Program-made: the position numbers and the translations under genes
Part shown: one piece after another, positions 1 to 21,184 of the stretch
How the letters are laid out: each line of letters begins with the position of its first letter
Position numbering within the stretch: position 1 is the stretch's first letter
Assembly: GCF_026151205.1 (NCBI RefSeq)
Contig: NC_087073.1
Span: 9,872,411 to 9,936,410 of the forward strand
DNA length: 64,000 nt
Source of the DNA: Bolinopsis microptera
Taxonomy: Eukaryota > Ctenophora > Tentaculata > Lobata > Bolinopsidae
Direction of reading: 5' to 3'
Notes under the pieces: generated by a model
Databases searched by the model: none
What the model saw: the letters and a program-made list of their open reading frames with translations, nothing else
Told to the model about the DNA's origin: nothing

Positions 1-875
1 ACATGCACGTTTTACAAAAATAATTACAAGTGTAAAATTACCAATCTTTAAAAATACACGTGTTACAAATACAAATACACGTGTAACAAAATACTGAGCA
101 CATATCAGGCCATATATTTGCTTAAATTTGAAGTGAGTTAAGTTTTAGAACCCTTTAAAAGCAACTCTAAAATTCAAATTCTTACCATTCTGAGAGGATT
201 GGATGCTAAAACGATGAGTATCGTTGATCAGGAGCTCTATTTATCAGGTTTTATAAAAACGCCAATAGAAAAATGCGAAGATTTTTTATAGGGTCTCCCA
301 GGAGATTCTATGTACTTCCAAAAGTATACATCCATTTTTTTTCCAGGTGTATTCGAGGAAATGTCTAAGCTTGTTATGTATGCAGTTTCATTGACCTAAT
401 ACAAATGATGGAATTTAAGTGAATTTAATCTGGCGGGTGGTATTTTTTTATGCAGATAAAGAGCTGAGTTGTGGTCTAAGATGGGAAGCCATAACTTATC
501 TCTGGATCTCAATCGGGTTGACATAATTAAAATAATAGTGCAATCTTGTCCTTGTCCTCTCCCCAGAATCCACAAGATGGTTAGGAGAATCGTCGAGGGA
601 CAAGCTGCGTCCGAAGAGCTCCGAAGGAGGGTTTTCAATCAGTTCCAGCCTGAAATGAACAGTTTTCACAGACTCTGCATCATATACAATTAATAATAAA
701 GCTGGACTAGCTGGACCTGTTCTTATGATAAAATTAATTAAAAATAAACCATGTTCCCCACTTGGAAACGATGTCACAGACAACAGCCACAATTTAACGG
801 TAAACATTCTTCACTAAATAACTGACCCAGTTTTAACAAATTCGAGTCATGAGGAGGAGACTGAATCTTACTTAC
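1..875 (+). repeat. Left arm of long inverted repeat
   Basis: The reverse complement of this segment recurs at 20275-21146 with only scattered substitutions and small indels; for example, a duplicated CTGGACTAG-like stretch near 705 is absent from the right arm. Homology begins at the splice donor of the sixth-from-start to last transposase junction (GTAAGTAAGATTCAG on the minus strand) and continues to base 1. It contains the terminal coding exon of the transposase (649-496). The outer 130 bp carry two ACACGTGT palindromes (56-63, 77-84). Confidence 0.93.
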
Positions 876-3800
876 TCGTCTGCGTCGTCCAAGCGTGATA
901 TCCGCAAGAAATTGTGCAGATGCACACAGCTTTTCAGAATCAGCCTAGTCACCTCCTCATTTGTGGTCAGGTGACTCAGGATCTTCCATTTCCTTGATAG
1001 GTGTCCGAAGACGCACTCTATGACCATCCTGCCTCTGAAACAGTGTACAATTCAATCTACATAAGGTTCTACAAAAGTTTTCAGTTTTGCGATGATCACT
1101 TTACAGGAAAATACAGGAAAACAGCTCAAAGAGCACAAACGGTAATTCTTGATCAATTCATACAAAAACAATCATGACTGTCTAATCTAATTAGATGTAG
1201 TTTTCTGAATTGTCGAGGCTACAATTTATTTATTTATTTAATTCGTGACGTTCCAGTACCTGGATAACCTATAGTTTGTCATCCGCTGAGATTTTGACAC
1301 CTTCCCCCTGTACGGCTTCATACAATGAGCATGAAGGGGAAAGGCATCGTCACCGACAATGTAGTAATTGACTCTACCAAGTCGCTCCTGAAAAGAAGAC
1401 GTAAACATTATATTAATTAAGTATCTTACAGCCTAGATAACATATAAGCTCATATTTTTATGTCCTAAAGGATGCAGACCAATGGCGCTGTTTTTAGCGC
1501 CCAGAACCACTCTCCAATCAAGGCCCCCCATCAAAGTCCGAAAGCGGGGTTAAATTAAATCTTTCTATGAACACACCCTGTTCCATTGTTAAAACGGTAA
1601 TCATGTTCAAGGGCTGGGATTCCGGGTAAAGTATTTACTGAGTTAATGAAGCCTCGAGCATTTGGTATTCACGAGTGTTCGCATATTATCATCAGTTCTT
1701 ACCTGATCATCATTCGGCAGAATCTCAGCAGCAGGTATAAAACCCCGTTCTAGGAATTCTCCAGAGGCCAGTCCTCGTCCCAGTCTGTCCTCTGACCAGA
1801 TTCCTCCGTCTGATCGACCGCCAAAGCTTCCAACGTTAAAATGACGGATTCTGAATAAGTAATTGTAGTAAAGAAGTTAGAGAATGATGTTAGCATTTAA
1901 GTTACATCTCTCATAGATCGCCCGCAATCCTCGCAAGTTTTAACTCCAATCTACCCATTCCTGTTTTTTGCAGAATGCAGCAATTTTTATTGAAAGCATG
2001 CAAAAAACGATATTCATGAGCGGTACATATGATATTGTTTTAAGATTACATATCTCATTTCAATAAGTTAGTAGGAATCTGGCTACATAATCTTGGTTGA
2101 AGAGGAGAAGTGACAATGTTCTTCACTACACTAGCATTTAAGTTGAACCATTTTTTTAAAGATGACATGTGAAAATAGCACTTACATATAATCAGCGTCA
2201 CACACTGCGAGGAGAATAACAGACGGCCATCCGTGATAATTAATCGTGTAACTTCCAGTTTTCCCAAATTTTGTAATGAAGCAATGCTTGCCGTCCACTG
2301 CCCCTGAAATGACATGTGTAAATGCCTCTTCTGTCTCAGGACAGACGAGGATAATAAAATTGGTCGGCTCTGAATGTTTAAATCATACTCCTAAAATTTA
2401 TGCTACTCAAAAACATCGAAATTTAATTCGTGAATTTTTGAAACTGTGGCGAACCTTAACTAGGCTAAGTTTCGGATTTCTGTGTGTGAAATGCCACCCT
2501 GTGGCGTATAGTTTTTGCCTGCTTTCAGAATGATCCAATAAAAACTGTACGAGGAGAGCATTTGAAGTTTGAAAAATGGTCGTTTCGGGAAGTCAAGATT
2601 GAAAACTTCCCATAGTTACTGTAGAATTGCATAATATGAGCAATGATCTTCAAACTGCAACAAATATCGTTTGATCTCACTCTATTCCTCTCTTCTTTAA
2701 GGAAACGCTATAGCATCAATTTCCATGATTCACCAACTCGAGACCCTCAGCTCCCGGCGTCCAATCAAAGATAATTATATATATATATATCAACGTCAAT
2801 AGATCGCCTCCCCCCTCCCCATCCCAAGATGCCTCCCCACCGTTCAGTCAGACTTTTTCATTACCAATGCAGTGCGGCAGCTGCCATCTTTCATGGAATC
2901 TCTGAGCAATTTTTTTCCAACATTCAGTCGACCGTGGACGAAAATCTGCGTGTTCAGCCAGGCAGACAGAGATGGCCGTTGTCACCTGAAATACAATTTT
3001 TACTTGATATAATAGACTTCTGTTCCTGAGGTATACCTGGTGATAAGTAAACTCAAAGTGTCAGTGGCTCAATGAATCTATAGAATAAGCAACTAAGCGC
3101 ACCAACCTTCTTTATTATCCTACACACTCTGCACCGGGATAGTACAAACTGGTTCGCCAGATACCCTTGCGCACACCCAGACTTCAGGTAGCTGTGGTGT
3201 TAACTTCAATTAGTGATGTAAAAAGTGATATTCCACATTTACATTATAACTCTTATATATATATATATATATATATAATGTAGTATTGAATGTAGATAAG
3301 AAATAATTCGACTTTTCATCTCTCTACAGAAATTTCCAGTTCAAACAACTGAAAAGTTGAGAAATTTCTCATAACGATTGACGACAGAGATAATTCCGTC
3401 ATTTATAAATATTCATCCAAGATTCTACCCTATATTGTCCTGTCCAACCTTAGGGTTAAAATGAGCTGCTCTCTAGCTGAGATTGACGTACTTTTCCGGT
3501 TGAACTTCTTTGGTTCTAGAAGCGGTCGAACTTTCATGAAAAGTGAATGATACTCTGATCTCGTCATACCAAATTGACTCCTGCCGGGCATCATCATTAA
3601 AATCTATCGATGGATCAAAATCTCTGGCTTATCGATTTAAAAATGGACAAGGAAATTAGCGGATATTACTATTTAATCAAGTTATGAGATCACTGATCCT
3701 TGTATAATATCATTATACTACATTATACATAGTATAAATTTTACTAACTGCATTTAGCTAGTTTATAGTAAATACACACGATCGCAGAATAGAGGAGCAC

Positions 3801-5168
3801 AATTGGGCTCTTTGTTCTGCGACCGTGTTTCCTTGGTGGGCCGACAGGTTTTTGTTGTGTAGTAGTGCTGGGGAAAAAACACGCTTTAACTATGATCAAT
3901 GAGAGTAAAAATTTTTAATTCTTGACCTTAGTGCCACAGTTTCTGTGGTAAAAACAAATTTATAGTTAAACGTTATATATCGTAGAAGGGTATGATTTAC
4001 TCACATCACTAAGCATCTGGATGGATTATTAGCACACAAGGATAAACATGACCACCAGCTATACCACGTAACCATAGCTCCGAAAGAAATAAATTGCTCT
4101 ACATAGAAACATCTGATTATTCTGGCCTGATCCTATCACATTGTAGTCCCCAGGGGTTCGGTAACAGGCAACTGGGACCTGGGTCCTTTTACCAGCCACA
4201 ATAACATTGGTCATGCCAGTACTGTCATAAACTGTAACCAACTATTAAAAATTAGTTATCTTTAGCTTAATTTTAAATTTTAAGTCATAGAGCAATCTTC
4301 TTAATTTTAAAATTTTTAAGAATAATATTTTACCCTAACTATGACGTGGTGGCACAATCATTATTCCACAATTTGTATTTCTCTAGATATCTCCAAGAAT
4401 TATGTAAATATTAAGGCTCGCTAATATCATAGATATATATATAATAAGGCATGTCTTCTCCTTGCCACTAATTTTCCAAAAACTATGTCCACTAATATTC
4501 CAATAGCTCATGGATTCGAAAATGGACAGGACACCCCCAATCATACTAGGTTGAGCGATGAAAACATGATGTGGCATAAACTCATTTCGACTAGGCATTT
4601 CGTATTGTAAGATGGTAAATTAATCCGCAAATACACAACTCATTTCTTAAGCATGAGAGCGTTGCTAATCATGTAGGTTACCGGTAATGTTGCCTAAATA
4701 TTGTGTAAGTCTGCTGTGTAAAATTGGACTTAATTTAATTATTTAGTTATTTAAACCCTTTAAACAAAATATTGAATTAAATTGAATTGAATATAATATA
4801 TATTGCCAGAATTTACTTACTTGTACATTTCTGTTGTCCCATATTTTAAGAGACGGTTGATCTGAGTATTATAGGCTCCGAATTCCTTACGTCCTTGGTA
4901 GTAGTACTTTACAGGTGCTCTATAATACAATATAGAATGTCAACAGCTTTTTTTTAAATTGTCACAAGGAAACACGATCAAGCGAACCTTGGCCCTTTAA
5001 ATTATGGAAAAGTCAGACAATTCAAAATAAAAAGTTTGTAAATCACAATACTCGCCTTTTTGCACAGCGATAACTTATTGTACTGTAAACTGCTTTTCTT
5101 GATATTAACCGAGCTAGATGAATCAGCTTCCCAAGCAGCAGCCCACATCTCCTTTTCGTCATCACCAT
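496..5168 (-). CDS. PIF/Harbinger transposase (DDE_Tnp_4, HARBI1-like), 10 exons
   Basis: The transposase cuts and joins element ends; it is a nuclear DDE nuclease. Exons on the minus strand are 5168-5110, 4919-4821, 3580-3449, 3191-3107, 2985-2865, 2303-2186, 1850-1703, 1387-1260, 1034-876 and 649-496. All junctions are GT/AG and keep phase, giving 1203 bases (400 aa plus stop). Family landmarks in order are GRKEFGAYNTQINRLL (about 35-50), ISAREQLILTL, HERWQLPHCIG, AVDGKHC (D169), VCDADYI, GSFGGRSDGGI, YIVGDDAFPL (D267), RMVIECVFGHL (E303), SCVHLHNFLR, and a tail resembling the usual R-x-x-L-x-x-YF ending. HARBI1 is slightly shorter (about 350 aa). No frameshift or stop was seen, so it looks intact. 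The start is the ATG at 5168-5166; two upstream copies of the surrounding 34-bp repeat give only 8-codon ORFs. The first two exons are less certain than the rest. Confidence 0.88.
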
Positions 5169-5249
5169 CCTAACGTCAAAATCTCCTTTTCGTCATTACC
5201 ATCCTAAAGTCAAAATCTCCTTTTCGTCATCAACATCCTAAAGTCAAAA
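5147..5249 (-). repeat. 34-bp tandem repeat (3 copies) over the transposase start codon
   Basis: Units begin ATCTCC at 5147, 5181 and 5215. On the minus strand each copy offers ATG-x-x-x-ATGACGAAAAGGAGA. In the copy nearest the gene this opens the transposase reading frame. In the two upstream copies it continues TTTTGA, giving short upstream ORFs of 8 codons each. Confidence 0.8.
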
Positions 5250-5544
5250 TTTTCGATGTGAATACATAGAACATGATAATTAGATTAGATTATGATGAAA
5301 ATCTTTTAAACATACTGGCTACAAAAAGCATTTTAGTAGTCCGAAGCTGTTCCAACATAAATTGAAACTGAGGTAAAAAGATGCCTAGCATCAAGTTAAA
5401 TTTTAAATCATTATGACTGAGTTATGAATATCAAAATAAGGTAGGTGGTCGTTTCGAAGTAAGAATCCTGCAGCTGCACTGAATTAACAGCAGTAAGCTT
5501 AGTACATTCCATGAAAAGTTAGTTGCTGAGAACAGGACTTGAAC

Positions 5545-5793
5545 CAGTGGCGTAACGAAGGGCCCTGCTGACCCTGCTGTGCAGGGGGGCGCTGTCTTAT
5601 GGGGGGGGGGGGGGGGGGCGCCAAATCGTCGTTTGAATGTGGGACAATTTTGAAAAAATTTTGAATTACCGGCGTATCCTCTTATATTGCCTAATTTGTT
5701 CAATTTTAGGGAGGGGCACCAAAAGGAGAGGGGGCGCCAACAGGGGGGCACCTTTTCGGCAGGGGGGCGCCAACAGGCGACGTTACGCCACTG
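5545..5793. mobile_element. hAT-type miniature element with 8-bp target duplication
   Basis: The ends are inverted: CAGTGGCGTAACG at 5545 and CGTTACGCCACTG ending at 5793. The flanking direct repeat ACTTGAAC occurs at 5537-5544 and 5794-5801, the 8-bp size typical of hAT. The interior is GC-rich with a long G run (about 5600-5618). No transposase is encoded, so it is non-autonomous. Confidence 0.9.
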
Positions 5794-5894
5794 ACTTGAA
5801 CCCACAATCTCCCAATGAACGCTTGGATGCTTTAAGTTATCTCGGCCCCACTCAGTCCCAACAATTCACTTATTTGTACTACTAAATTATTTAC

Positions 5895-6125
5895 AAGGAA
5901 ATATTCAAAAATATTCATATTTACCCTTCTGTACTGAAGGGGACCCTTGGCAGGGTCACTCATTTAACCCTCGCATATGGTTTCCAAACATTCGGCTGAG
6001 CAGACCGAGAGGCTGCATAGACCCGATAGAGTCCTTAGCTGAGCGTCAATGACGCTCACCTCAGGGACTAATGATGCACCAGCGGGGAGTCTAACCACTA
6101 ATCTTTCGATAGTGAAATCTGAATA
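5895..6125 (+). repeat. Dispersed repeat, copy A
   Basis: Starts near ATTCATATTTACCCTTCTGT and runs through a block shared with 11232-11400, including GCTGAGCGTCAATGACGCTC and GGGACTAATGATGCACCAGC. The first 70 bp also recur inverted at 10985-11060. No coding sequence or clear tRNA-like promoter boxes were seen. Confidence 0.7.
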
Positions 6126-6359
6126 CCGCCCCTACACCACCAAAGACCTGCAATTTAATCTTTCAAAATTCCGTTGGGTGCACATACCCAACAGAGTCTT
6201 TAGCTGAAAATATCTCAGATCGATTTTGGGCGTTTTCGACCACTTGTAGTTGAAATTCTTAAATAATAGATATCCTAATTTATAACTTTTAATCAGAGTG
6301 AATTAATAATTGATATTTGATAATTTATTTATTTGATAGTTTAGTCTGATATTGATATT

Positions 6360-8609
6360 AATAAGCTGGTATCTCTAAGCACCTAGCTGGTTTCCTAAAC
6401 TCATTCATGAAGCTGGGTCTATTTCCAAATATTCTCAAAATAGGTAAGGTCACCCCCGTATTTAAGAAAGGAGACCCACAGCTGTTTGATAACTACAGGC
6501 CTATATCCATTCTACCTATCTTTGGTAAGATATTTGAAAAAGTAATTTACTGCCGACTATATAGCTTCTTTACTTCACATATGGTCATATACGATAAACA
6601 GTTTGGATTCAGATCCAACCACTCAACGGCACATGCCATCAATTACTCCATTGACCACATTCTTAAAAACCTAGAAAGTAAGAATCATGTAATTGGCATA
6701 TTCATTGACTTAAGCAAAGCGTTTGACACAATCGACCACAGAAAATTACTTGTCAAACTTGAACACTATGGCATAAGAGGGCCCTGTCTTGACCTAATTG
6801 AAAGCTATTTGTGTAACCGACAGCAGTATGTTGATTTCCAAAATACACACTCTGATCACTGCGAAATTGAATATGGGGTACCACAGGGATCAGTTCTAGG
6901 CCCTCTCCTCTTCTTACTCTACATTAATGACATAACCAACTCTAGCAAACTTGGACACTTCATACTGTTTGCAGATGACACGAACATATTTGTTGCTGGA
7001 AAAACTGAACAAGAAGCCTATTTGAATGCTAATAAAGTACTTGAATCTGTAAATGACTATATGGAATCTAACTTGCTGCACATTAACCAAAGCAAATCGG
7101 TCTACATGTTATTCAGACCTGGCCGGTACTCGTCCTGTGCACGTGCTCGTGAATATGGCTCTGAGAACTCACTCACGTTATCAGGCAACACGCTTACACG
7201 AGTAGATAAAGTGAGATTCCTTGGTGTTATCATAGACCATGAACTATCCTGGGAACCCCAACTAGATAACATAAAAAGTAAACTAACTACAAGTATAGCT
7301 ATAATTAAACGTATTATGAAGTTTATTCCAGAAACAGAGTACCATAAGCTGTATGACTCCTTATTCAAGTCTCATATGAGCTACTGTATCAGTAGCTGGG
7401 GTGGTGTCACACCTTATAGACTATCTAAACTGTTCTCCATCCAAAAAAGATGTGTACGCCTTCTATTTGGAAGCAAACCAAGCTTTGACCGGGCAGAGTA
7501 TTATGAAACATGTGCACGTGCAAGACCATACAGTGAACACATCGCAAAAAGGAGCTTTGCTTTGGAAAACACTAAGCCAATATTCAATACCGAGAAAATC
7601 ATGTCAATCCACAACCTGTACACCCAACATATATCCACTGAACTGTTTAAAATCTTGAAACTGCATCAACCTATCTCTCTGACAAGTTTATTCCAAACAA
7701 GTTCCAGAGCATGTAGCCAAACTATGCGGGTCCCCCGACACAAACTTGAAATTTCTAAACACAATTTTGTCTTCAAAGGTACGACTATATGGAACAGTTT
7801 GGTTGATAAAATATTCGACAAATGCACTCCTAATGAAAACAATGTCATGGTCCCTGGCTCTAGTAAATTTTCCGACCTTTCCTCCCCCATCTCAATTATC
7901 AAGAGCCGTATCAAAAAGCTCTTACTTGAAACCCAGCAATTGACAACACCTGGGCGTGAAATTGAGTGGCTCCCCCTAAATAGCTGGGGCATTGAACCAG
8001 CTTAGTCAATCAGCATCCCATCCCTTGCATACAACTAATTACAAAAGCGCTAATTATACCTGTTTCAAAAGCATCCTGTCTGGAAGTTCCCTGACTGCCG
8101 TGTGAATCTTTGGATCTATTTTTGGATCTATTTTTATATTGATATGATTTTTATATACCTATATATTCCTCGCATAATTTCCATGTCCGCCTGAACAAAC
8201 CTGGCACCATCAAATCTTACTCTAGAAACCCCAGAAATCATCAAGCCTAGTCTGAATTCAAAACTAGTTGACCAGCTACGTACAGTTTCCTGGACAACTG
8301 GAACCTTTTGGGCCATGCACAAGCCAATAGCATGTATGGTCCTGCAGTGGGGTCTCCTTGTCCTTGGATCTGTGTTTTGATCCGTCTTTTCTTAAAATTT
8401 TCCATTTGTGTCACTTAGAATCACTTTTTAAAATGTTAATCGACACCACTGGTCCTAGTTAAATTTAGCCATGGCACGACTACTCGAACGTAACAGTTAA
8501 ATAGGTGTGACATACTATTATATTCTTATAATTATATCATATGAATTGATTGCACTGCTAATAAATAAAATACTTTGTTTTACTAAAATACTTTGTTTTA
8601 CTATTGATT
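6360..8609 (+). mobile_element. 5'-truncated LINE (CR1/L2/Jockey-like) with target-site duplication
   Basis: The reverse transcriptase ORF (6371-8005) is followed by about 600 bp of 3' untranslated sequence ending in a doubled AAAATACTTTGTTTTACT, the short tandem tail seen in CR1/L2-type elements. Direct repeats ATATTGATATT at 6349-6359 and 8610-8620 bracket it. They are AT-rich, so this could be chance. Endonuclease and ORF1 are missing, consistent with abortive target-primed reverse transcription. Confidence 0.75.
6371..8005 (+). CDS. LINE reverse transcriptase, C-terminal part of ORF2
   Basis: An open frame runs from about 6365, with the first ATG at 6407 (532 aa). It begins inside the RT domain (FPNILKIGKVTPVFKKGD, NYRPISILPIFGKIFEK), then FIDLSKAFDTIDH, GVPQGSVLGPLLFLLYIND and the catalytic FADDTN box, followed by the thumb and the C-terminal region usual for CR1/Jockey elements. 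The reading frame is uninterrupted over more than 1.6 kb, which argues for a recent insertion. The upstream in-frame sequence ISKHLAGFLNSFMKLG is also RT-like and is cut off at the left insertion boundary, so translation from 6407 is unlikely to give a working enzyme. Confidence 0.9.
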   Translation: MSKHLAGFLNSFMKLGLFPNILKIGKVTPVFKKGDPQLFDNYRPISILPIFGKIFEKVIYCRLYSFFTSHMVIYDKQFGFRSNHSTAHAINYSIDHILKNLESKNHVIGIFIDLSKAFDTIDHRKLLVKLEHYGIRGPCLDLIESYLCNRQQYVDFQNTHSDHCEIEYGVPQGSVLGPLLFLLYINDITNSSKLGHFILFADDTNIFVAGKTEQEAYLNANKVLESVNDYMESNLLHINQSKSVYMLFRPGRYSSCARAREYGSENSLTLSGNTLTRVDKVRFLGVIIDHELSWEPQLDNIKSKLTTSIAIIKRIMKFIPETEYHKLYDSLFKSHMSYCISSWGGVTPYRLSKLFSIQKRCVRLLFGSKPSFDRAEYYETCARARPYSEHIAKRSFALENTKPIFNTEKIMSIHNLYTQHISTELFKILKLHQPISLTSLFQTSSRACSQTMRVPRHKLEISKHNFVFKGTTIWNSLVDKIFDKCTPNENNVMVPGSSKFSDLSSPISIIKSRIKKLLLETQQLTTPGREIEWLPLNSWGIEPA

Positions 8610-8620
8610 ATATTGATATT

Positions 8621-10758
8621 TTTATTATTGAATGAAGCTAACTCCAGACATAAATAATACTACTTCTATTAACAAAGGGACTTGGAGTATAAACGACCAA
8701 TTTTGCATAATTGTCTATCTAACCAAGAATTCAGGAGGCAAGGGTGGGTGCGTAAACTTTATGGTCTGCACTCTCAGATCCTGTATCACCCTGGATTCAT
8801 TTCGACGTATTTTTGGTAAAAGTATATATACTTTCTGGTCACTCTCTTGCTACTCCAAGTCCCCTTTAGAAGATATATGGTCTAAAGTTTGCGCTAGTTA
8901 TATTTATAAAATATGTTTTTGTCTGCTTTAACTGATACTAAATAAAATTGTTGTTTTCTTGAAAAAATTGTTGTTTTCTTGAGTTTTATTTATGCTATTA
9001 TGAAAAATATATCAAAACCTCAGGAAACAACAATAGATGGCAGATTGAGCAGCGATGCTTGAAATTTGTGCAAATATTGTTTGGTTTGCATTTATCAAGA
9101 AAACGACACCGTAGAATCGTTTGTCGTCATGCAGTAACTTCAGTAAGCTACTAACTCACTAATGTGCAAATCTGAGAAATTTTGAGTAAGCGCTCGATTT
9201 TTGAATTAGGATATATGATGGAGCGAATGTGCGCGGCGCGCCTCTGATTTTCGCTTTTATGTATTTTCAGCGTGGCTGTTAAGTTTATTATATTTAAATG
9301 AAACTTTAATTGAAAACTTTAATTGAAAAATTCAATTGAAAACTTCGGTTGAAAACTTGAATTAAAAACTTTAAATGAACTTTGATTCTTATCTCGATGT
9401 CAAACCTTCGCCGCTTGGTGAGGCACAGAGGTGCAGTTTGCCGATCTACCTAAGGTTGCGAGAAGAATTATTTGATGCGCGGCGCGACCCAGTAGTGCAT
9501 CGCGCTACAAAATGAACTTTAATCTAATATTGAATTTTGATTATAAAAGATTTTAAAAATATATCTAATGTTCAAAATGTAAAAAATGCATTATTAAAAA
9601 TTGTTTAAATTGAAAAATATAAAGGAAAAAATGTTTATACCACATACATAAACTTAAAACAAAAAACATGTGTTTAAATATGTATTTCAATCTTTCAAAA
9701 ATTCATGTAGATTTGTTACATCAAAAACTGGTACTGAACAAAATTAAGGAAGAAAAAAATTGAGCCGCGCATTTAAAGACGTTTTACCTCGAACTATAAA
9801 AATCAAACGCTTTGACAACATTTGTCGAATTTCTTCAAAATTGACTTAGCAGATTTATTACTTTACTTCATGGTGAAAAAACACAATTTGCTAAATATAA
9901 AAAGTGGTGCTTTGTTGTTCAATGCCCCTTGAGCGACGTTTGCATGTATTTGGACTAATTTCTTACTTTCATATGTATTGGTGGATGATGTTTGGTTGGA
10001 TGACGGACGTCGGCCAAACAGCTACAGCTTTGAAGTAAGACTATAAATTGTGTGTAGCTAAATGAAATTGCACAAGCTTGAAATGCGGTTCTCATAAGGA
10101 AATTAGCTCCTTTGGCTACAAAATAGCACGTATGGTTTTGAACATATATAATATGTTTTTTGATATTATATATCAATTAATCGCTGTTTCCTGACTTTCT
10201 ACACTCAACAAAAATGTGTTTCTCCTATATCAGGCACAACAATGTTATGTCCTGAAACCATGCACTAGTGTTTCTATGTTTAGTAGGGTTTCCGGTCATT
10301 TATATATGTACAAAATTGTTCGTCTTGTAACCACCAGTATTATTATTTTTTCTATTATATAGAGATTTTGACATTTTGGAGATATTTGTGATGATGTTAT
10401 GTCATAATTTTGTACATTACTTTACCAGCGCCAGAAAAAATATGACATGCTGAGTCCTTCTCTTCACATGTATTTGCAGAATTATAAAATGTTTTCCCCA
10501 GCAAGTCATTCCTGACTACTGTTTGGGCAGATTTTAAGATGGGTTATTAACTGGTTTGCCCTCAGCTCAACCGACTTTTTACTTAACTTTTACTTTATCA
10601 GATGTGATGCTGCTGCACATTGGCTAAATGGATTGGCCTCGGGACATTTGGTTCAGTAATTTTCATGCTTAAACACTCCTTTTTTGACAAAACACATATA
10701 TGCTGAAATAAATACACACTTATTTTAGGCTTGGTGGTGTATGGGCAGGATTTGAGTT
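8621..10758. other. Gene-free interior of the large element
   Basis: 8621-8990 ends in AATAAA plus a doubled AAATTGTTGTTTTCTTGA and may be another LINE 3' tail. 8990-10758 is AT-rich with a few GC-rich patches (GCGCGGCGCGCC near 9231). No convincing exon was found. Confidence 0.5.
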
Positions 10759-10973: not shown

Positions 10974-11400
10974 CAAGCGACCCTGCTAAAAGATCTAGAA
11001 TCTTGTAAGGGTCCCCTTCAGTCAGTACAGAAGGGTAAATATGAATATTTCGAATATATATGGCTGGTGATATCGAAATGGAAATGGGGGAGGGGTGGAC
11101 AATGAAAGGAGACAGTTGCCCTAGGGATAAGGGATGAAAGGGGTAAAATAAAGGAGGGTGGATGTGACTTGAGCCCTGGGATGGAAAATAGACTGTACAG
11201 AAGCCAGGAGTTCTCTCTTTCTCTTTATCTTTTAAAGGGGACCCTTACAAGATTCTAGATCTTTAATAGGGTCACTCATTTAACCCTTGCATGTGGTTTC
11301 TCATACACTAAGGAGGCTGCATAGACCCGACGGAATCCTTAGCTGAGCGTCAATGACGCTCACCTCAGGGACTAATGATGCACCAGCAGGAGGAGTTAGG
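10974..11400. repeat. Inverted pair of the dispersed repeat
   Basis: 10985-11060 is an inverted, and 11232-11400 a direct, copy of parts of 5895-6125. The two copies face each other, sharing AGATCTAGAATCTTGTAAGG and its complement, around a GA-rich spacer, so the whole can fold back. Confidence 0.65.
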
Positions 11401-13369
11401 TGACTCCTAAGTCATCCAGGTGTTTGGGTTCAATAACCACTACAATGCAATTGTATCAATTGTACATACAAATTTAGATGAACTGTCACATTTTAATGTG
11501 ATTTGACAGCTCAAATGTAATTGCTAAAACTTTAACCACATTTTGTGGCAAATCGTGGGGAGGTTACTTAACTTTTTTGACACGTGACACCGATTAACCT
11601 AACTTAAATCCCCAATCGATTTCACTTGTCAAAAAAACTGGCGTCAGCTCCCAATGAATTGCCACATCTATGGAAATTGCAAATGGTCCACAATCGATTG
11701 AGGACAAGGTACATCATATTAACATTTCATGTGAAATCAGCATCGAATATTGTCGACATCTGTAACTATCGACAATACTCGGTTTTCGATGTACACATGA
11801 CGTAGTATAGAAGGACAAAGATTTCCACAATCAAAGAATACCATCTGTTTTCAGGTACTACCGAGTGGTTACAGTTTACTGTCGTCATGTCACACTGAAA
11901 GTAATCGTGCAAGAACATTACTTTGTTAACCATAACAGCCACCAGCAGCTATGTCACGATATGGTATACGATACGATTTGTTTGAAGCATTCGCTGTCTC
12001 ATTATTTGTTTGTTATTAAAGGGCCGTATATTGCTGAAAATTGAAATAGAAATCTGAGACGTGTAAAACGGAGCTCCCTCTGTGCGATTAGAGATCAGAG
12101 GGAATTTCCATTCCACTTTCTACTGCAGTTTTGTATACTTTTGCTACAATTTTGATAGTATAAAACTGCATTAACATCAACAATTTTTATCTCCGAAATT
12201 CATAGTGCGGGAATCTTAGTCAGAGATGCAACTTCCATTATATCTTGTCGCAAAATTTGTATTCCTGCTTCAACAATTTCGTCAACGAAGGAAGAACACG
12301 AATCAGATTAGTAGCGTTTATTAAGCACCACAAAATGTGGATTGACGGTGACAGTAATTCCAAAATTACGTAGTCCAGCACTTCTGACCTCTTCATTCAA
12401 CCAATAGTTGTTTCGGTGGTGGTTTATAAATGCTTTGTTTGGCAAATGTTGTGGACTGCTCATGCTACTGTACATCATTAGTTAATATTACATCTGTATA
12501 GCTAGAGTACTTACAATTACCAATACAAATTTTTGTCAGAAAAAATCTAGGGTGTAATTTGAAATTGGACGAGAATATTTCCGACTTAAATGATAAGTCG
12601 GAAATTAATAAGGTGATGTGGTTGTCCTCTCAGGACCAAGCTCGAAGAAAATGTATTTAGTGTTTTTGGACCAGGTTTCTATTTCAAATGCGGCAATTAC
12701 AGTTTCTGCTTCTGACTTGGCGTGATTGCCTGGTCTTAACAGTATCTGCATGCTCATTGCTCATGCTGTTGGTGAATTTGTACTGTGTATTCAATAGCCC
12801 TCGGTTATTTGATGTATATGTTTTATTTGATTTGTTTTCACATTTATAACGTCAAGCAGAAGTGACGCGACAGAGGAGGTTCAGTGGGGGAGATATAAAA
12901 AAGGCCAAATCGAGGTCATTACTCATTTGTGAAGGTTTCCTTGCTAGCACACTGACCTATTCTGTGATATAGCATTATCATATGCTATTCGCCCAACGTT
13001 ATTACTTGGTTCACTATCGATACAGGAGATTATCATTGTTCTCGTGATTTGATCTTTCTGTGTGGCATGTTTGTGGATCGGAATAACAACTGGTTTACTC
13101 ATGTTTTTGATTGCTATACAGTTCGTCCTCACAGATAAGTTTCAGGCCATAGCCTATGCTGTATATAAAATGCGTTGTAGGCTAAGCTACGGGAACTTGA
13201 GCTGCATGACATCTTTTTAAGATATTATCCAATGACATTGGCTTCTCAGATTATTACAATTTATGCAAAAAGACTGTTTCTAGAGGAAACTACATGCTCC
13301 AAAGTGTTAAAAACCTTTGATAGAGCATCCTGCATCAATTCGAGTCATTTGGCCGTTATGTGTATTGAA
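11401..13369. other. Gene-free stretch before the unknown gene
   Basis: No exon could be supported. The first exons or promoter of the plus-strand gene may lie here, but I could not find a start codon with a good donor in the right phase. Confidence 0.4.
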
Positions 13370-13445
13370 CATGGGAAAATATTCTAAGCATGGGAAAATA
13401 TTCTAAGCACGGAAAAATATTCTAAGCATGGACAAATATTCTAGA
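13370..13445 (+). repeat. 19-bp tandem repeat, 4 copies
   Basis: CATGGGAAAATATTCTAAG-like units start at 13370, 13389, 13408 and 13427, just upstream of the first recognisable exon of the unknown gene. Confidence 0.9.
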
Positions 13446-13494
13446 ACTGTTGGTAACAACATCGTGAGTTCAATAAAAATTTTCAGGGACCACA

Positions 13495-16400
13495 TTCTTG
13501 GATACTCTAGGAGAAAGTGTCGCTGCCGCTCTGCGGACAGTAGCGCGGAAAGACGAAAAGCTAGCAGAGAGAATTGCTATCGACATAGAGCACCAAATTA
13601 TCAACAAAATTTATTCAGGAAGGCCATCCAGGTAAATATATATATCTATTATTATATTGTTCTATGGTGTTCACACCTATTGTTAAAATTTGCAATGATC
13701 GCGTGTCACGATCGTAGCGCGGCGTAAGTGTGCTTTTTTTGCAATTGAATTATGTAGATGTACTTTAAAGCACACTTACGCTGTACAACCGTCACACGTC
13801 TTAACAATAGGTGGGAACACCATGCTATACAATGGATATTGGCCTTGGGTTAGAGTGGAACTGCAGTATCGTGGTAGGGGTAAACCATCTGAAATTACTT
13901 GATTTAACAACGAATCTGTATAAATTACTGTTTGCATCATAAATTTAAAGAATAATTGCAGAACAACCTCAGGAACCTCGCTGATTTGTAATTCGTCACT
14001 GCGCCGCTACCTGCGGTTGCGCAACTACCCGTGACTGCACTGCTACTAAGTTTTTTATCAAGAGTATCAAACCCTGATTTTGTTTGATCATTTGTTTTTT
14101 AGATGCTCTGATATTACTCTTCTCATCATATTGATATAAAAATTGTTAATAAATTGTTTATAGTAGTAATAACTAATATGGTTCTGTGTGCAGATTTTGA
14201 TATGTCGGGTTTACTTTGTATTTTCACGAAGGAATTCTTCACCAAACTAATAATTTTATGCTGGAATGGAATCCGTTCTGTAAAAGTGTAAAGGTTTCTT
14301 TATATTTCAGAAACAGCTTTTATTTCCTAACAGCCACTGCTTCCGTCCCAGCCTTCAGCCTTGATATTTTAATTACATCATATTTGATCGAGATTGTTAG
14401 GAAAGTTTATTATCAAGAGTATCAAACCCTGATTTTGTTGCTGGTATTACTCTTCTCATCATATTGATATAAAAATTGTTAATAAATTGTTTATTATATA
14501 GTAGTAATAACTAATATGGTTCTGTGTGCAGATTTTGATATGCCGGGTTTACTTTGTATTTTCACGAAGGAATTCTTCACCAAACTAATAATTTTATGCT
14601 GGAATGGAATCCGTTCTGTAAAAGTGTAAAGGTTTCTTTATATTTCAGAAACAGCTTTTATTTCCTAACAGCCACTGCTTCCGTCCCAGCCTTCAGCCTT
14701 GATATTTTAATTACATCATATTTGATCGAGATTGTTAGGAAAGTTTATTATCAAGAGTATCAAACCCTGATTTTGTTGCTGGTATTACTCTTCTCATCAT
14801 ATTGATATACAAATTGTTAATAAATTGTTTATTATAGTAGTAATAACTAATATGGTTCTGTGTGCAGATTTTGATATGCCGGGTTTACTTTGTATTTTCA
14901 CGAAGGAATTCTTCACCAAACTAATAATTTTATGCTGGAATGGAATCCGTTCTGTAAAGGTTTCTTTCTATTTCAGAAACAGCTTTTATTACCTAACAGC
15001 CACAGTAATATGGTGTGTTTCACTGCGTTGTCATACTGGGTTTTGCATTGTTTTTTTTTGAAACCTTCATCAAGTAGATATATAGCATTGTAGGTCAATA
15101 TTTTGGTTGATTTTCCTTTTCGTATAATGTACTGCATAATGTATCTACTGCTAACTGCAAATAATTCTGTTATCTCGACTTACTTATTTGTAGGAAACAT
15201 GTTCGAAAGGGAAACGTCGGTTACCAAGATTCAAAATGATGACAAGAAGAGGAACATGTTGAAGTACCTTAATATTTTTTTGCTAACCGAAGTGAAGGAT
15301 AAGCTGGACTTTCTCCACATGTTAGTAGATGTGTAACGATCACGTTTTGAGAGCTAACAACCATAGCGCAGCTGCCAAGACAATTTTTACTGATACATAA
15401 ATTATATGATGAGCTGAAACTACACTATCAGCCTTGCAGAATAAGAATAATAGCCTACAATGATTAGAAGATATTTCAACTGTTCATATTTTCAGAAAGA
15501 CGTTCACACCTACGAACATTGACAAGTTGGTAAAAAGCCTGCAGTGCGATCTAGATTGTAAGCCCAGTGGCAAATAGTCAGGCGTCCAGGAATTTAACAC
15601 CTAGTCAAAATTTGTTGATAACCGGTAAAAAAAGATTCTTGTGGAAAAAATATTCACATTAATTTAAAATTAAATCAAAATTGGTCGCTCTCAGGGCTAA
15701 CGCGATGTTACATCATTTTATCGACTCGAAGTTCGAATCGAGCGCATTCCTAGATTCCATGACTATTTCTTACCTATAAGATTGCTTGACTATTTTTTGC
15801 GCATTCAGACACCAAAAAACGCGCAGAAAACGCGAGCTATCCATTCCTCCTTCCTCAACATCCCGGAATATGAAAAAATAGTCATGTAAAATAGTCATTT
15901 GAAATAGTCATGCAAAATTTCAGCTCTGATACGCTAAAATATCAAGTTAATCTTAAACAATCGACAATCTAATATGAATCCTCCCAATCCTCCCAGCCAT
16001 ATTAACTGGTGAACGGTGTAAATATAGAGCGGTATTTTAAAATGTAGCATTCAAAATTTTATGGATTCAAGTTGGCTCCTTTAGTCTAGATTCATTTAGA
16101 AAATTCTCGAAGTTCGAGTAATACAGTATTCTCAGGGTTTGGCGCTTAAGGAAGCTTCACATCCGAGACCGATTTCCACGAATCAATTTAATATTGTAGC
16201 TACAAGTCAACAACAGTGCAAGTGGGAAGGAAGTGAATCTAGCCATTGCTACTATATCAGGGGAACTCGTGTGTTCTAGGCTTAAGCAAGCTTCACATCC
16301 TAGATCATCTAGAGTACAGTGCAGACAACCCCCTCCATTATACATCCCTATCCCGCTTTAAGTCCGAAGTTTATCATTGTTTATTGTCCAATATTGTATC

Positions 16401-19400
16401 TAACCTGGCAGAAGCAAGCTTCAGATCCAAAGTCAGGCCATAAATATCGACACAAGGTCGATGCCACTTTCAGAGTAGCGAATCATTCATCATGCTGATG
16501 AGAGTCAAATCTTTGAACACGATCTACCGAGTTAGTATGAAGAATAGTATGCAGATGTCTGTGGGCTAGGGTCTATACTTCTTTTAAAAAATATTTCCTT
16601 GCGTTTCAAATAAATTAAAGAATTCTCAGAAATTTTTTATTTAATTTCAAAATTTGCAATTGCATATTCATCCGGTAATTATTCTAATGGATACGCTAAG
16701 CATTTCAAACTAATCTTGACCTGGGAGAAGAGCTGACCAGTGACAAGTCGGCCGCAAAGCGGCCGAAAAATATATAGCCTTTTTTTCTTCCCAAAATGGA
16801 TTCCTAGTCATATTTAAAATTTATTCCACTGGGATTGTAAGTATCCTCTGTTAGCCTCTCCTCCACACTTCTTTTTATTTGTTCATAAATTGGAAGCATT
16901 GTCATGGATTCTTTGAACAAGTGGTTGCGCAAAACGGTAGTTTAAAGGGCTTGGGTTGTGGTCTGGGTTAATGTTGTGTAACGGTAAGGGTTAGAGTCGG
17001 GGATCGAGCTATCATAGCTCGGAGCTAGGCCAGGTTTAGGTGTAAGACAACGTTTGAGATTTAAAACCAGGGGGCCAACGATCGTGAGGTGAAATGTCGA
17101 GGGGTGAAAACCCGTTTAATTCCATGTGATGGATTGTTTAAAAAAGTGGTCGAAAGGACGATTTAAAAGACCGTACTTGATCGTTGAAAGTTAATGATTC
17201 TCCTCTAAGACGTGTAGATATATGTAGATACGTTTTAAGTCATTAATATACCAGGAGAGAAAATCCGCATCTTATTGATGAACTATGCTTCCTTTCGACC
17301 ACTCTTTTATCGACCAATGAAGTCACGTATGGGTAAGGTACTATGTGATCACTGATCAGGTATCTACTCCACTTACTCATTCGGCTGTAATTACAGTGCA
17401 CATTGATGAGAAAAAAGACAAGACTTTGGCAAATAGGAAGTTGCTAATATCAACAATCTGTGAGCTGATCACCGCCCTCAAAAAGATAAAAGTAAGTAAT
17501 TATACTTGATGTCACAGATCTTCCGAAATAAGGTCCTGGCAGTGGGATCAATTAGAACATCCGTAATCAGATTGAGCTGTACATGATAAGCAGGCATTTT
17601 GCTTTGTACAAGTTTAAACAAGTTTCCCGTTTTTTACTTTACTAGGTTCCAGTTGATAATTACCGACTGCAACATCACCTTAGTTCAGTCGGGTGGAATG
17701 TTTGCAGTGTTTATAATTGCCTATGCTTCAAAAACATGCTGTGGCATACAGTATAAACAATTTCCTGAACAGGGAGGTAGGAGTGGTGATGGACAGAGTG
17801 GAAGTCTGACAAAGTTAGACGAAGACATCAAGAAAGTTTTTTGGAACTTCTTTACAGCTAAAGACGACAAGGTTTGAATATAGTTCTTCAACTTAACAGT
17901 TAATATTCTCACTGATTGAACATAAATTGATCATTCCCCCCTGAGTCCTGATAGGTATTGATTATGAATCGCTTTCACGTGGTGTATTAGATATTACATT
18001 AGCTATTAATTTTACCTACCATTGACCTTTAGCAACCCGGAGAAGACAGTGTTGATGGAGGAGAACAATTGGCAACAACTGTTAACGAGGCTCCGATCAG
18101 GGTCTCTAATATTTTCGAGAGATGCGACATAGGTATACATATTGTTACATTATAATTATACCATAGTGAAGCTCACTCATATCACTGTATGAGAATTTCG
18201 CTGTAACTCATGACCGACGATAAATTTGCCCTACCTTCTCTGATCGTCTGTATCAGTATAGCCTATCTTGGGCTTTAAAATGAATTGCTGCATTATGGTT
18301 AATCGTAGGCGATTCCCAGGTGCTATTCAGAGAGTGATAAAGAAGATGCCCCCGGTTCCCGTCACGAAACCTGGATCATTGACAGCCCCCGAGAGTGAAC
18401 AGAGTGAGTTATAGCTATTTTAAAAGTCATCCGGATGGGTCACTAGGCGCTACCTGTGCTGAATATGCTAATATTTGTTTAGTCATTTTTTGTACTATCT
18501 ACTGATCGTAGAAACAGTTTTGTGTCATCGTCAGAGCGGACTCCCAGTTTGAAATTTTATGGGTTTACAATACGATTCTTCAAGTAGGAACATCCTGCAA
18601 TAAACTTCGTTTTCATACACTAATCCGCTGTGACGTTTCCAGGTGCTGTTCAGAGAATAGCTTTGGCCATCCGGAGCGAGCCCCGGGCCCCCGTCGCAAA
18701 ACCCCCCGTTCAACCGGACACCACACCAGCAGCCGGGCCTGCGCCTCCAACCAGCAAGGTCCGAAAAGACCACATATCCAGACTTCAGAAAGAGTCCGAG
18801 AGTCGCCTGAGTGAGTTACAGCTATTTCTAAACATCATTTAGAATTATCGCCTGTAATATGGATGGGTCACCACTCACCAGGCGCAGGAAGAATTCATCT
18901 TTGGTCAATTAAAGTTGATACTTTCATCTTTGACCATTTTTTTGTACGATCTTTGTGACGAGTAAAAATTGGAAACCGCATTATTTAATCAGACTTTTGT
19001 GTGATAACTGACGCGTTCGCCATAATACAAAACTCCCTAACCTTAAGGCGTAAGGTTTCCCTCTGTGCAACGTCGAAAATAACTTAGTCACGCCTTTATC
19101 ATTTCAGAGAGACGACATCTTCACCCCAAGGGCCTCCGAGATACAATGGTTGAGGAGGCTTTGAAGATCAATCCGGTGATAGGTAATAATTCAAGTGCAA
19201 CATATCGTTTTTAAACTTTCGGACATTAATTTTTCTTCAAGTCGAAGATTGCATCGCCGTTTCCACACAAAGGTAGCTGGTTTGACGCACATCAAGTCTA
19301 TTTTAAGCGATATAATACCCATTCACGGTCGAAATGGGGGTTAGTCGATATGCAATCGAAACCACTACAGTTTTAGGTCACTATAAGTCACGTTTCACTT

Positions 19401-20504
19401 GGTATGTGTATATAACTCAGTTCTAAAGTTAAAACTAACCCACTTCTGCAGGTTATCTCAGAAATCCATCTCTTTACTTTTAGCAAATTTCATGTCTGTT
19501 TGAACCTCAGTCTTTTATCAGGAGCCGTGGCCGAACAGGCGAGACAGATCCTCCAGGAGGATAGATGGGATGTGTTCGGCAAGAGTATTGCCCAGCTGTC
19601 GGCTGTCGCATATCAAGGTAACTTATTTATAGGTATTCGATCAAACAGTCCCGGAAAAAATTGGCTCACCGGCGCGGCCCAGCCAAAATATTTGCTACTC
19701 TTTTTTTGCAACAAAAAATCCTTGATCACGTCCAAATACTAGGGTCTCCCCAACAAAATCTTGCACCGGTCGAAAGCCGCGAGATTTAACTACCTAGACA
19801 AAACAATCTGCCACAATCTGCTTTCCAATCCAATAAGTTTGCACAGGAAAAAAACTGAATTCGTTTTGTTGATATGATGTGTGGTCAAAGCAACCTGTCT
19901 CCATATAATACTATCCGTACAACAACAAGAAATGTAGGATCATTGAATCTTTGGCGACTAATGTGGGGGGGGGGGGTAAACCCTATTTTGACTCATTTTG
20001 CCTCATTTTTCCCTTTTTTGGCTGCCCGAATGAGGTAAAATAAAGTAAATTTCGGCAAAAACATTTGTCTCTAAAAAGGCTCAGAAAACTAGATTCATTT
20101 ACCTCACTTTACCTCATTTTACCTCATCCCAATTTTGGCTGCCCGAATGAGGTAAAATGAAATTGACCCCCCCCCCCCCCCCCCCCACTAATGTTTAGAA
20201 CTCTTTCAGACGAACTGGAGCTCATGGAGCACGCAGGAAAGATCCTACTCAAGATCGCGGCAGACGCGAAGACAGTAAGTAAGATTCAGTCTCCTCCTCA
20301 TTACTCGAATTTGTTGGGTCAGTTATTTAATGAAAAATTTTTACCGTTAAATTGTGTGGCTGTGTTGTCTGTGACATCGTTTCCAAGTGGGGAACATGGT
20401 TTATTTTTAATTAATTTTATCATAAGAACAGGTCCAGCTTTATTATTAATTGTATATTATGCAGAGTCTGTGAAAACTGTTCATTTCAGGCTGGAACTGA
20501 TTGA
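13495..20504 (+). CDS. Unknown multi-exon gene carried in the Harbinger element
   Basis: I do not recognise the family. Exons: about 13495-13635, about 15197/15213-15332, 15496-15557, 17397-17491, 17653-17871, 18033-18132, 18320-18403, 18643-18810, 19108-19182, 19522-19617, 20210-20274 and 20490-20504. From 15213 on, every junction is GT/AG and phase-consistent. The join between the first two exons is uncertain, since the stronger acceptor at 15196 does not fit in phase. The start codon was not found. The product of the listed exons is about 410 aa: an alanine/glutamate-rich helical start (SVAAALRTVARKDEKLAERI), a helical leucine-rich stretch (LNIFLLTEVKDKLDFLHM, DKLVKSLQ), a cysteine-containing segment around SGGMFAVFIIAYASKTCC, a proline-rich linker, and a helical C-terminus. 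It is not the Myb-like partner usual in Harbingers. The last exon is the transposase terminal exon in another frame, read as AGTD-stop. A captured host gene and an element accessory gene are both possible. Confidence 0.65.
14054..15010 (+). repeat. About 338-bp tandem repeat, nearly 3 copies
   Basis: The block beginning near TTATCAAGAGTATCAAACCC recurs with a period of 338 and then 336 bp (matching points 14216, 14554, 14890). The first two copies are almost identical and share an 83-codon open frame by chance of duplication. The third diverges after about 14990. The array lies in an intron of the unknown gene. Confidence 0.92.
15558..17396 (+). other. Long intron of the unknown gene
   Basis: No exon could be phased into the gene here, and no repeats with clear ends were seen. 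16130-16440 has a loosely repeated CTTAAGCAAGCTTCACATCC motif. Confidence 0.45.
18320..18890 (+). repeat. Tandem exon duplication
   Basis: The exons at 18320-18403 and 18643-18810 both start after CCAG with GTGCT(A/G)TTCAGAGA and end in A followed by donor GTGAGTTA(T/C)AGCTATTT. The following introns share GGATGGGTCAC and CAGGCGC or TAGGCGC. Exon and flanking intron were therefore duplicated, and the proline-rich middle of the second copy then diverged or expanded. Confidence 0.8.
19965..20186. mobile_element. Miniature element with G-run/C-run ends and 8-bp target duplication
   Basis: It begins in a G run and ends in a C run. Inside, GCTGCCCGAATGAGGTAAAA occurs twice. ACTAATGT flanks it at 19957-19964 and 20187-20194. 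It sits 24 bp upstream of the exon at 20210, so its right target copy is next to the acceptor of that exon. Confidence 0.85.
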
Positions 20505-21146
20505 AAACCCTCCTTCGGAGCTCTTCGGACGCAGCTTGTCCCTCGACGATTCTCCTAACCATCTTGTGGATTCTGGGGAGAGGACAAGGACAAGATTGCA
20601 TTATTATTTTAATTATGTCAACCCGATTGAGATCCAGAGATAAGTTATGGCTTCCCATCTTAGACCACAACTCAGCTCTTTATCTGCATAAAAGAAACAC
20701 CACCCGCCAGATTAAATTCACTTAAATTCCATCATTTGTATTAGGTCAATGAAACTGCATACATAACAAGCTTAGACATTTCCTCGAATACACCTGGAAA
20801 AAAAATGGATGTATACTTTTGGAAGTACATAGAATCTCCTGGGAGACCCTATAAAAAATCTTCGCATTTTTCTATTGGCGTTTTTATAAAACCTGATAAA
20901 TAGAGCTCCTGATCAACGATACTCATCGTTTTAGCATCCAATCCTTTCAGAATGGTAAGAATTTGAGTTTTAGAGTTGCTTTTAAAGGGTTCTAAAACTT
21001 AACTCACTTCAAATTTAAGCAAATATATGGCCTGATATGTGCTCAGTATTTTGTTACACGTGTATTTGTATTTGTAACACGTGTATTTTTAAGAATTGGT
21101 AATTTAACACTTGTAATTATTTTTGTAATACGTGCATGTATTGTTT
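20275..21146 (-). repeat. Right arm of long inverted repeat
   Basis: Inverted copy of 1-875. It starts exactly at the donor GTAAGTAAGATTCAG after the unknown gene's exon at 20210-20274 and includes a copy of the transposase terminal exon (20490-20643). ACACGTGT palindromes lie at 21056-21063 and 21077-21084, with a third at 21153-21160 just beyond the stretch that can be compared with the window's left edge. Confidence 0.93.
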
Positions 21147-21184
21147 TGACTAACACGTGTACTTTTCTAGAACGTGTTTTTTAA

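What the first reader, a model, noticed from the sequence alone, without database searches (positions are those of the whole stretch)
1..21184. A ~21-kb Harbinger-type transposon with >=850-bp inverted arms and a seemingly intact transposase
Seen: inverted arms and a 10-exon transposase whose junctions all keep phase to 400 aa, with D169, D267 and E303 present. Known: PIF/Harbinger elements are normally short with short terminal repeats and a second Myb-like ORF. Inferred: a giant, cargo-carrying lineage, possibly recently active because the arms are still near-identical.
Basis: partly seen in the sequence, partly recalled or inferred. Interest (0 to 1): 0.85.

Follow-up and report, generated by a model that had tools for sequence, protein, structure and literature searches.

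The report
Giant two-gene Harbinger-type jumping gene
This is a real, apparently recently moved 22.5-kb DNA transposon with very long mirror-image ends and an apparently intact transposase, several times larger than usual members of its superfamily and paired with a second gene that shows no sign of the usual partner domain.

Summary
Base 1 cuts the left arm; the element runs from C2:9871619 (792 bp left of the window) to window 21697: 22,489 bp, arms 1.4-1.7 kb, ends CA[G/C]TGGTGTGCCCACC, flanked by TNA. A paralogous empty site (C8) joins both flanks through one TTA. The minus-strand transposase (9 phase-consistent exons, 369 aa, start unresolved) matches DDE_Tnp_4 (E 1e-16) with D188/D286/E322. 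Eight loci carry near-identical transposase exons; seven also carry the second gene. Eight paired-tip elements with one or both genes are 16.6-29.3 kb. The window copy and four others share about 16 kb, mostly at 98-99.9%, so the large body itself moved; nested insertions add more. Recent movement rests on copy identity, intact frames and the empty site, not on arm identity. No cargo domain was found in the proteins scanned. Verdict: a giant, long-armed variant of PIF/Harbinger. Host fits a ctenophore; unproven.

The parts
1..889 (.). Left inverted arm, part inside the window (outer 792 bp lie at C2:9871619-9872410)
20263..21697 (.). Right inverted arm; the element ends at 21697 (...CACACCAGTG)
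21698..21700 (.). Right flanking TTA (left flanking triplet TAA at C2:9871616-9871618; empty paralogous site has one TTA)
5052..5169 (-). Transposase exon 1 of the model (true start unresolved)
4821..4917 (-). Transposase exon 2
3449..3580 (-). Transposase exon 3
3107..3191 (-). Transposase exon 4 (within the HTH_Tnp_4 match, which is just under its cut-off)
2865..2985 (-). Transposase exon 5
2186..2303 (-). Transposase exon 6, carries D188 (DGKH)
1703..1850 (-). Transposase exon 7
1260..1387 (-). Transposase exon 8, carries D286 (GDDAF)
872..1034 (-). Transposase exon 9, carries E322 (VIEC); TAA stop lies at the inner edge of the left arm
15199..15320 (+). Second gene (ORF2) exon 1 from an ATG; an upstream exon is possible
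15496..15557 (+). ORF2 exon 2
17397..17491 (+). ORF2 exon 3
17773..17871 (+). ORF2 exon 4
18033..18132 (+). ORF2 exon 5
18320..18403 (+). ORF2 exon 6
18643..18810 (+). ORF2 exon 7 (proline-rich; its start resembles that of exon 6)
19108..19182 (+). ORF2 exon 8
19522..19617 (+). ORF2 exon 9
20210..20274 (+). ORF2 exon 10, ends at the inner edge of the right arm (donor, or read-through into the arm to a stop at 20641-20643)
6363..8598 (+). RT-bearing, LINE-like insertion (RT ORF 6365-8005; 'LINE' is my inference), absent from the five copies compared over this stretch; about 11 bp repeated at its edges
15562..16833 (.). Nested repeat in an ORF2 intron; 43 genome matches at 80-100%, the window's own included (lower bound)
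11488..14172 (.). Central segment missing from four short-form copies (checked at sequence level in one, by block spacing in three); bases 12000-14000 match C2:4.57 Mb (100%) and C3:7.18 Mb (89%). Right border ambiguous up to about 14846 because of tandem repeats
14048..15003 (.). Tandem repeats of about 338 bp

Best explanation
A giant, long-armed member of the PIF/Harbinger superfamily. Shown: an element of 22,489 bp with defined ends, TNA flanks and a clean paralogous empty site; two divergently oriented intron-rich genes (a DDE transposase running left, an unknown protein running right) whose coding regions reach the inner edges of the arms; a family of near-identical copies, 16.6-29.3 kb between paired tips. 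Inferred: the transposase recognises the tips and cuts and pastes the whole unit into TNA sites; the second protein is the accessory DNA-binding or targeting subunit that Myb-like proteins supply in ordinary Harbingers; the outer arms, which hold three TGAAACGT[A/C]GCGCG repeats spaced 16 bp just inside the tip, carry binding sites, while the inner arms serve as the 3' ends of both genes.
For: DDE_Tnp_4 E 1.1e-16, Plant_tran E 2.2e-8. Paired inverted tips at other loci. In the eight pairs readable at both ends all 16 flanking triplets are TNA; the two sides agree in four (the left tip of C2:4.56 was read by eye). Paralogous empty site on C8: CCAGGG-TTA-TCCTT with both flanks contiguous (one of 12 flank-repeat copies was fetched). 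Four further copies match the window over about 16 kb, mostly 98-99.9%. Transposase exons of these five copies are identical except one synonymous change; 1 of 1110 exon columns varies versus 17 of 3214 non-coding columns (Fisher p 0.057). The second gene has phase-consistent exons and is found in 7 of the 8 loci with near-identical transposase exons.
Against: HTH_Tnp_4 is just below its cut-off (26.1 versus 27 bits). In four of eight pairs the flanking triplets differ in the middle base. No expression or excision data. The function of the second protein rests only on its position. Old copies have decayed (pN/pS 1.0-2.2, rough), so selection is at most weakly visible, in young copies. The two best uninterrupted transposase relatives (C10:13.84, C7:18.85) have only 33% identity, and no phylogeny was built; they also lack a Myb match nearby.
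Confidence: 0.88

Rival explanations
1. An ordinary small Harbinger merely bloated by nested insertions in this one copy; not an intrinsically large element.
For: This copy carries an RT-bearing insertion (6363-8598) and a 1.27-kb genomic repeat (15562-16833). Other copies have inserts of their own. Three sister-family loci with related exons show no pair of arms flanking the transposase (pairs of at least 100 bp at 80% identity: none at two loci; at C7:16.29 several, all on one side of the gene), and the two C7 loci share only about 4.5 kb with each other.
Against: Four other copies at separate loci share about 16 kb including introns and both genes, mostly at 98-99.9%, with the same central gap, so the large body was mobilised as such. 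Two elements that share the tips but show neither gene are 16.5 and 17.4 kb.
Confidence: 0.12
2. Copies spread by host segmental duplication or ectopic recombination rather than by transposition.
For: Mosaics exist: C2:4.56 has a decayed 89% transposase half and a 99.5% ORF2 half; C3:7.17-7.20 looks like the reverse, if its two stretches belong to one element. Elements or tips abut on C1 and C6.
Against: The flanks next to the tips differ between copies, the triplets in eight readable pairs are all TNA, and an empty paralogous site is exact for the window copy.
Confidence: 0.04
3. A cargo transposon: the central segment or the second gene is a captured host gene unrelated to transposition.
For: A long-form-only segment (11488 to about 14172) contains an exon-like frame (13484-13631); related frames lie on C9 and C46. 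The second gene has no known domain.
Against: Strong ORF2 matches lie at loci of this family; two single-exon matches (C9:11.41, C11:3.11) were not examined, and one weak match at C2:3.81 looks like chance. ORF2 is kept in 7 of 8 transposase loci, as expected of a subunit. The central frame is broken in the C3 copy and does not join ORF2 in phase in my model.
Confidence: 0.15
4. The inverted arms are an assembly artefact.
For: None found.
Against: The same inverted structure recurs on several chromosomes with different flanks, and left and right arms keep consistent differences in five copies.
Confidence: 0.01

Closest known systems
Animal Harbinger elements (PMC9179366, passages read)
   Same: DDE transposase plus a second gene; 3-bp target duplication
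   Different: There the inverted repeats are usually 25-50 bp and the second protein is Myb/SANT-like; here the arms are 1.4-1.7 kb and no Myb match was found
Pifvine families of grapevine (PMC2528002, passages with a table read)
   Same: PIF type, TSD mostly TAA or TTA, second ORF, some with transduplicated DNA
   Different: Complete elements are 5-7.2 kb with inverted repeats of 20-35 bp
mPing/Pong system (PMC4561436, passages read)
   Same: 3-bp TSDs of TNA type; several middle bases accepted
   Different: Small elements with short inverted repeats (recalled); mismatched TSDs were engineered there, whereas they occur naturally here
PHISTA (TET-carrying Harbinger) of rust fungi and HarbingerS (PMC12730594, passages read)
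   Same: Harbinger relatives with extra proteins; the third PHISTA protein lacks a Myb/SANT domain
   Different: PHISTA has TA duplications and a TET/JBP gene; HarbingerS carries a SET gene; neither domain was seen in the proteins scanned here
Galileo/Foldback elements (PMC3688188, title and start of abstract in a search listing only)
   Same: Unusually long inverted repeats on a DNA transposon
   Different: P-element superfamily, transposase with a THAP domain

Membership tests
PIF/Harbinger | DDE_Tnp_4-type transposase with D, D, E | tested here: met
   (E 1.1e-16, 61.3 bits versus cut-off 24.8); triad positions
PIF/Harbinger | 3-bp target duplication of TNA/TWA type | tested here: met
   All 16 flanks of eight readable pairs are TNA; the two sides agree in 4 of 8 pairs; empty site TTA. 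The C1 pair (TGA, TTG, unreadable, TTA) was left out
PIF/Harbinger | Transposase helix-turn-helix domain (HTH_Tnp_4) | tested here: inconclusive
   E 6.3e-6 but 26.1 bits against a 27-bit cut-off
PIF/Harbinger | Second element-encoded protein | tested here: met
   10-exon gene in consistent phase, present in 7 of 8 transposase loci; expression not tested
PIF/Harbinger | Second protein has a Myb/SANT-like domain (typical, not universal) | tested here: inconclusive
   No Myb match in Pfam up to E 5; Myb_DNA-bind_5 lies within 3 kb of 14 of 18 full-span DDE_Tnp_4 hits but at none of the giant loci; introns could hide it; fold not tested
PIF/Harbinger | Short terminal inverted repeats (usual, 25-50 bp) | tested here: not met
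   Arms 1.4-1.7 kb; a usual trait, not taken as defining
PIF/Harbinger | Transposase groups with PIF/Harbinger in a tree | not tested
   No phylogeny was built
Polinton/Maverick | DNA polymerase B, retroviral-like integrase, packaging and capsid genes | tested here: inconclusive
   None seen in the proteins scanned; not every ORF was scanned

The most novel reading that the evidence does not exclude
A Harbinger lineage in which the Myb-like DNA-binding partner has been replaced by an unrelated protein, and in which recognition moved to long arms with subterminal GC-rich repeats, allowing bodies of 16-29 kb to move. The naturally mismatched TNA triplets (4 of 8 pairs) would reflect donor-derived bases carried on the excised ends.
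Probability: 0.33. Interest if true: 0.72.

Novelty: new variant of a known kind. Interest (0 to 1): 0.55.

Why it matters
The PIF/Harbinger elements described in the papers read here are 5-7 kb (grapevine) or have inverted repeats of 25-50 bp (animals); a family that moves 16-29 kb with two apparently intact genes would show what limits or relaxes transposon size. The second gene offers a test of whether the Myb-like partner is replaceable. Several near-identical copies and a clean empty site make activity directly testable in a living animal.

Tried and rejected
Rejected: Polinton/Maverick or other giant classes (no such domains in the proteins scanned; one search gave only a sub-threshold UBA-like match, E 0.055, a sub-threshold EF-hand-like one, E 0.18). 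Rejected: the frame at 13484-13631 (GTTFL...) as an exon of ORF2. I had joined it by hand; later phase checks do not allow it, and the segment is missing from the short-form copies. Rejected: a host relative of ORF2 at C2:3810617 (E 0.012); local tblastn at that locus did not reproduce the match, and the open frame reads like a lyase-type enzyme (my reading, recalled). Rejected: arm identity as a clock. Led nowhere: comparison of the window's ORFs with C5:13.72 and C6:12.43, where the rows shown were arm matches. The two best uninterrupted transposase relatives (C10:13.84, C7:18.85) share over 5 kb that runs off the fetched stretch, with no ORF2 match. PDB searches: no transposase match up to E 1; five weak ORF2 matches, E 0.34-1.2. 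Phage records: no match. PMC12221973 (passages read) and PMC6431247 (passages read, 'Harbinger' 0 times) gave no description of such an element. Structure prediction was not run: the stated rule takes proteins read letter for letter, and these are spliced. Paper searches for a giant or long-armed Harbinger, or one in a ctenophore; I saw nothing like it in the listings, which cover open-licence papers only and were read as titles and starts of abstracts.
Full report
WHERE AND WHAT. The window is C2:9872411-9936410 of a 264.65-Mb assembly. Base 1 lies inside the left arm. After fetching 6 kb to the left, BLASTN of the right side against the left gives 97% over 1149 and 97% over 423 aligned positions in inverted orientation; the left arm holds an additional partial duplication. 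The arms are therefore about 1.4 kb (right) and 1.67 kb (left), not 0.85 kb.

ENDS AND TARGET SITE. The outer 271-bp query at the left end finds 44 matches in the genome (40 of 114 candidates scored, so a lower bound); 12 of these are only the left flank (query 1-57), itself a repeat. Tips occur as inverted pairs at C11:8213444-8235453 (22.0 kb), C6:6128118-6157427 (29.3), C7:10882208-10900386 (18.2), C2:4557860-4582745 (24.9), C2:1728779-1748691 (19.9), C1:614763-639795 (25.0), C1:639789-656396 (16.6), and, with more divergent tips, C5:13718650-13736073 (17.4) and C6:12425289-12441817 (16.5). Unpaired tips also exist. Reading the junctions places the ends at CA[G/C]TGGTGTGCCCACC. The window copy has TAA on its left and TTA on its right. 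Eight pairs can be read on both sides (window, C11, C6:6.13, C7, C2:4.56 with a variant left tip read by eye, C2:1.73, C5, C6:12.43): all 16 triplets are TNA; the sides agree in four pairs (C11, C2:4.56, C2:1.73, C6:12.43) and differ in the middle base in four (window, C6:6.13, C7, C5). The two C1 elements abut and were left out of this count: they read TGA and TTG, and unreadable and TTA. Of the 12 flank-repeat copies one, on C8, was fetched; it holds the uninterrupted site CCAGGG-TTA-TCCTT with both flanks contiguous. This is direct evidence of insertion with a 3-bp duplication.

TRANSPOSASE GENE. On the minus strand nine exons between 5169 and 872 join with GT-AG sites and consistent phase to 369 residues plus a stop. 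Pfam: DDE_Tnp_4 E 1.1e-16, Plant_tran E 2.2e-8, HTH_Tnp_4 E 6.3e-6 but just under its cut-off. The 5' end is unresolved. The TAA stop sits at the inner edge of the left arm. In four other copies the exons have the same length, splice dinucleotides and sequence, except one synonymous change that sets the window copy apart; a further one, on C3, is also open with two changes. Across the five aligned copies 1 of 1110 exon columns and 17 of 3214 non-coding columns vary (Fisher p 0.057); the 32 gapped columns are all non-coding. This is suggestive, not proof, of selection.

SECOND GENE. On the plus strand ten exons (15199-20274) join in consistent phase to 322 residues, ending at the inner edge of the right arm, where the frame either stops soon after splicing or reads on into the arm to a stop at 20641-20643. 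Pfam up to E 5 gives only a sub-threshold EF-hand-like match; the PDB gives nothing credible (both with a 324-residue hand-joined version). In the same genome Myb_DNA-bind_5 matches 27 times and Myb_DNA-bind_4 ten times. Comparing positions by eye, 14 of the 18 DDE_Tnp_4 hits that span positions 1-158 have a Myb_DNA-bind_5 match within 3 kb; none of the giant loci does. Against a special status of the giants: the four full-span hits without such a match include C10:13.84 and C7:18.85, the two best uninterrupted relatives of this transposase, so lack of a Myb neighbour may be older than the giant size. Introns could hide a Myb domain from both searches, and Harbinger Myb-like proteins are known to be diverse (PMC9179366, passages), so 'not Myb' is likely but unproven.

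FAMILY. Near-identical transposase exons lie at eight loci (C1 twice, C2:1.74, C2:9.87, C3:7.19, C6:6.13, C7:10.9, C11:8.2), near-identical ORF2 exons at eight (the same list with C2:4.58 in place of C3). Seven loci have both. Decayed relatives are the C2:4.56 transposase half (3 stops in 342 compared codons, with gaps; pN/pS 1.18), and ORF2 at C3:7.17 (no stops in 255 codons but gaps, two exons missing; 2.20) and C5:5.74 (2 stops in 300 codons; 1.00). My exon-by-exon aligner placed many gaps, so these ratios are rough. Of the five young ORF2 copies compared with the window, L040 (C2:4.58), C1b, C2b and C11 show no gaps apart from a 9-bp length difference at exon 8; C7 has small gaps and an in-frame stop in the exon 1 match. 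Weaker ORF2 matches at C1:22.76, C9:11.41 and C11:3.11 were not analysed as genes.

WHY SO LARGE. Against four fully fetched copies (C7, C2:1.73, C1:0.64, C11), the window element shares about 16 kb, mostly at 98-99.9%, with shorter pieces at 93-97%. An RT-bearing insertion at 6363-8598 (RVT_1 E 2.8e-39; about 11 bp repeated at its edges) is absent from these four and from C2:4.56. A 1.27-kb repeat at 15562-16833 has 43 genome matches at 80-100%, the window's own included. The segment from 11488 to about 14172 is missing from the four copies, while bases 12000-14000 match C2:4.57 (100%) and C3:7.18 (89%): a long and a short form exist, and the short form is found at several loci. The body is mostly introns and non-coding DNA; the proteins scanned show no cargo domain. 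Three sister loci with related exons (C7:9.34, C7:16.29, C5:12.18; mostly 43-55% identity) show no arms flanking the gene within about 10 kb on each side: no inverted pair of at least 100 bp and 80% at two of them, and at C7:16.29 several pairs all on one side of the gene; the two C7 loci share only about 4.5 kb. Giant size may thus be specific to this lineage, with the caveat that those loci may be decayed.

AGE. Without gaps, same-side arms are 98.9-99.9% identical between five copies, the two arms of one copy 97.4-98.3%. Better evidence for recent movement is the near-identity between copies, the open reading frames, and the clean empty site. I did not convert this to years.

HOST. 13 large contigs and 264.65 Mb agree with the table in PMC11797021 (Bolinopsis microptera: 265 Mb, 13 chromosomes, but 346 scaffolds against 232 contigs here; passages read) and with PMC10232365 (13 chromosome-scale scaffolds; passages read). 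This was not tested with marker genes.

MECHANISM. Shown: insertion in the past, ends, target site, two genes. Inferred: cut-and-paste, the role of the second protein, and the role of three TGAAACGT[A/C]GCGCG repeats at 28, 44 and 60 bases from the tip. mPing work (PMC4561436, passages) proposes that PIF-type excision cuts the TNA triplets in a staggered way and finds several middle bases accepted; the mismatched triplets here could arise if donor bases travel with the ends, which I could not test.

Noticed in passing
C2:9871616-9871618 and window 21698-21700; also C6:6.13, C7:10.88, C5:13.72: The TNA triplets on the two sides differ in the middle base in 4 of 8 readable pairs, although the empty site on C8 shows a single TTA.
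   Followed up: partly
C5:13718650-13736073 and C6:12425289-12441817 (L031-L034): Large elements with the same kind of tips but no match to either gene; arms of 2.1 kb (C5) and about 5.7 kb (C6), partly palindromic interiors, an RT-like open frame in C6 (my reading).
   Followed up: partly
C1:639.8 kb and C6:6128.1 kb (L013, L004): Two elements or tips abut head to head with only about a triplet between them, possibly insertion beside a resident tip.
   Followed up: no
C2:4557860-4582745 and C3:7168500-7198585: Mosaic loci: one part about 90% and decayed, another over 99% identical to the window copy, suggesting recombination or conversion between copies; that the C3 parts form one element was not shown.
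   Followed up: partly
window 13484-13631: Exon-like open frame (GTTFLDTLGESVAAAL...) in the long-form-only segment, related frames at C9:9527140 and C46:4461; does not join ORF2 in phase.
   Followed up: partly
window 496-810 (-) and 20167-20643 (+): Open frame repeated in both inner arms (...ELIENPPSELFGRSLSLDDSPNHLVDSG...), just after the ends of both genes; could be an alternative shared 3' exon.
   Followed up: partly
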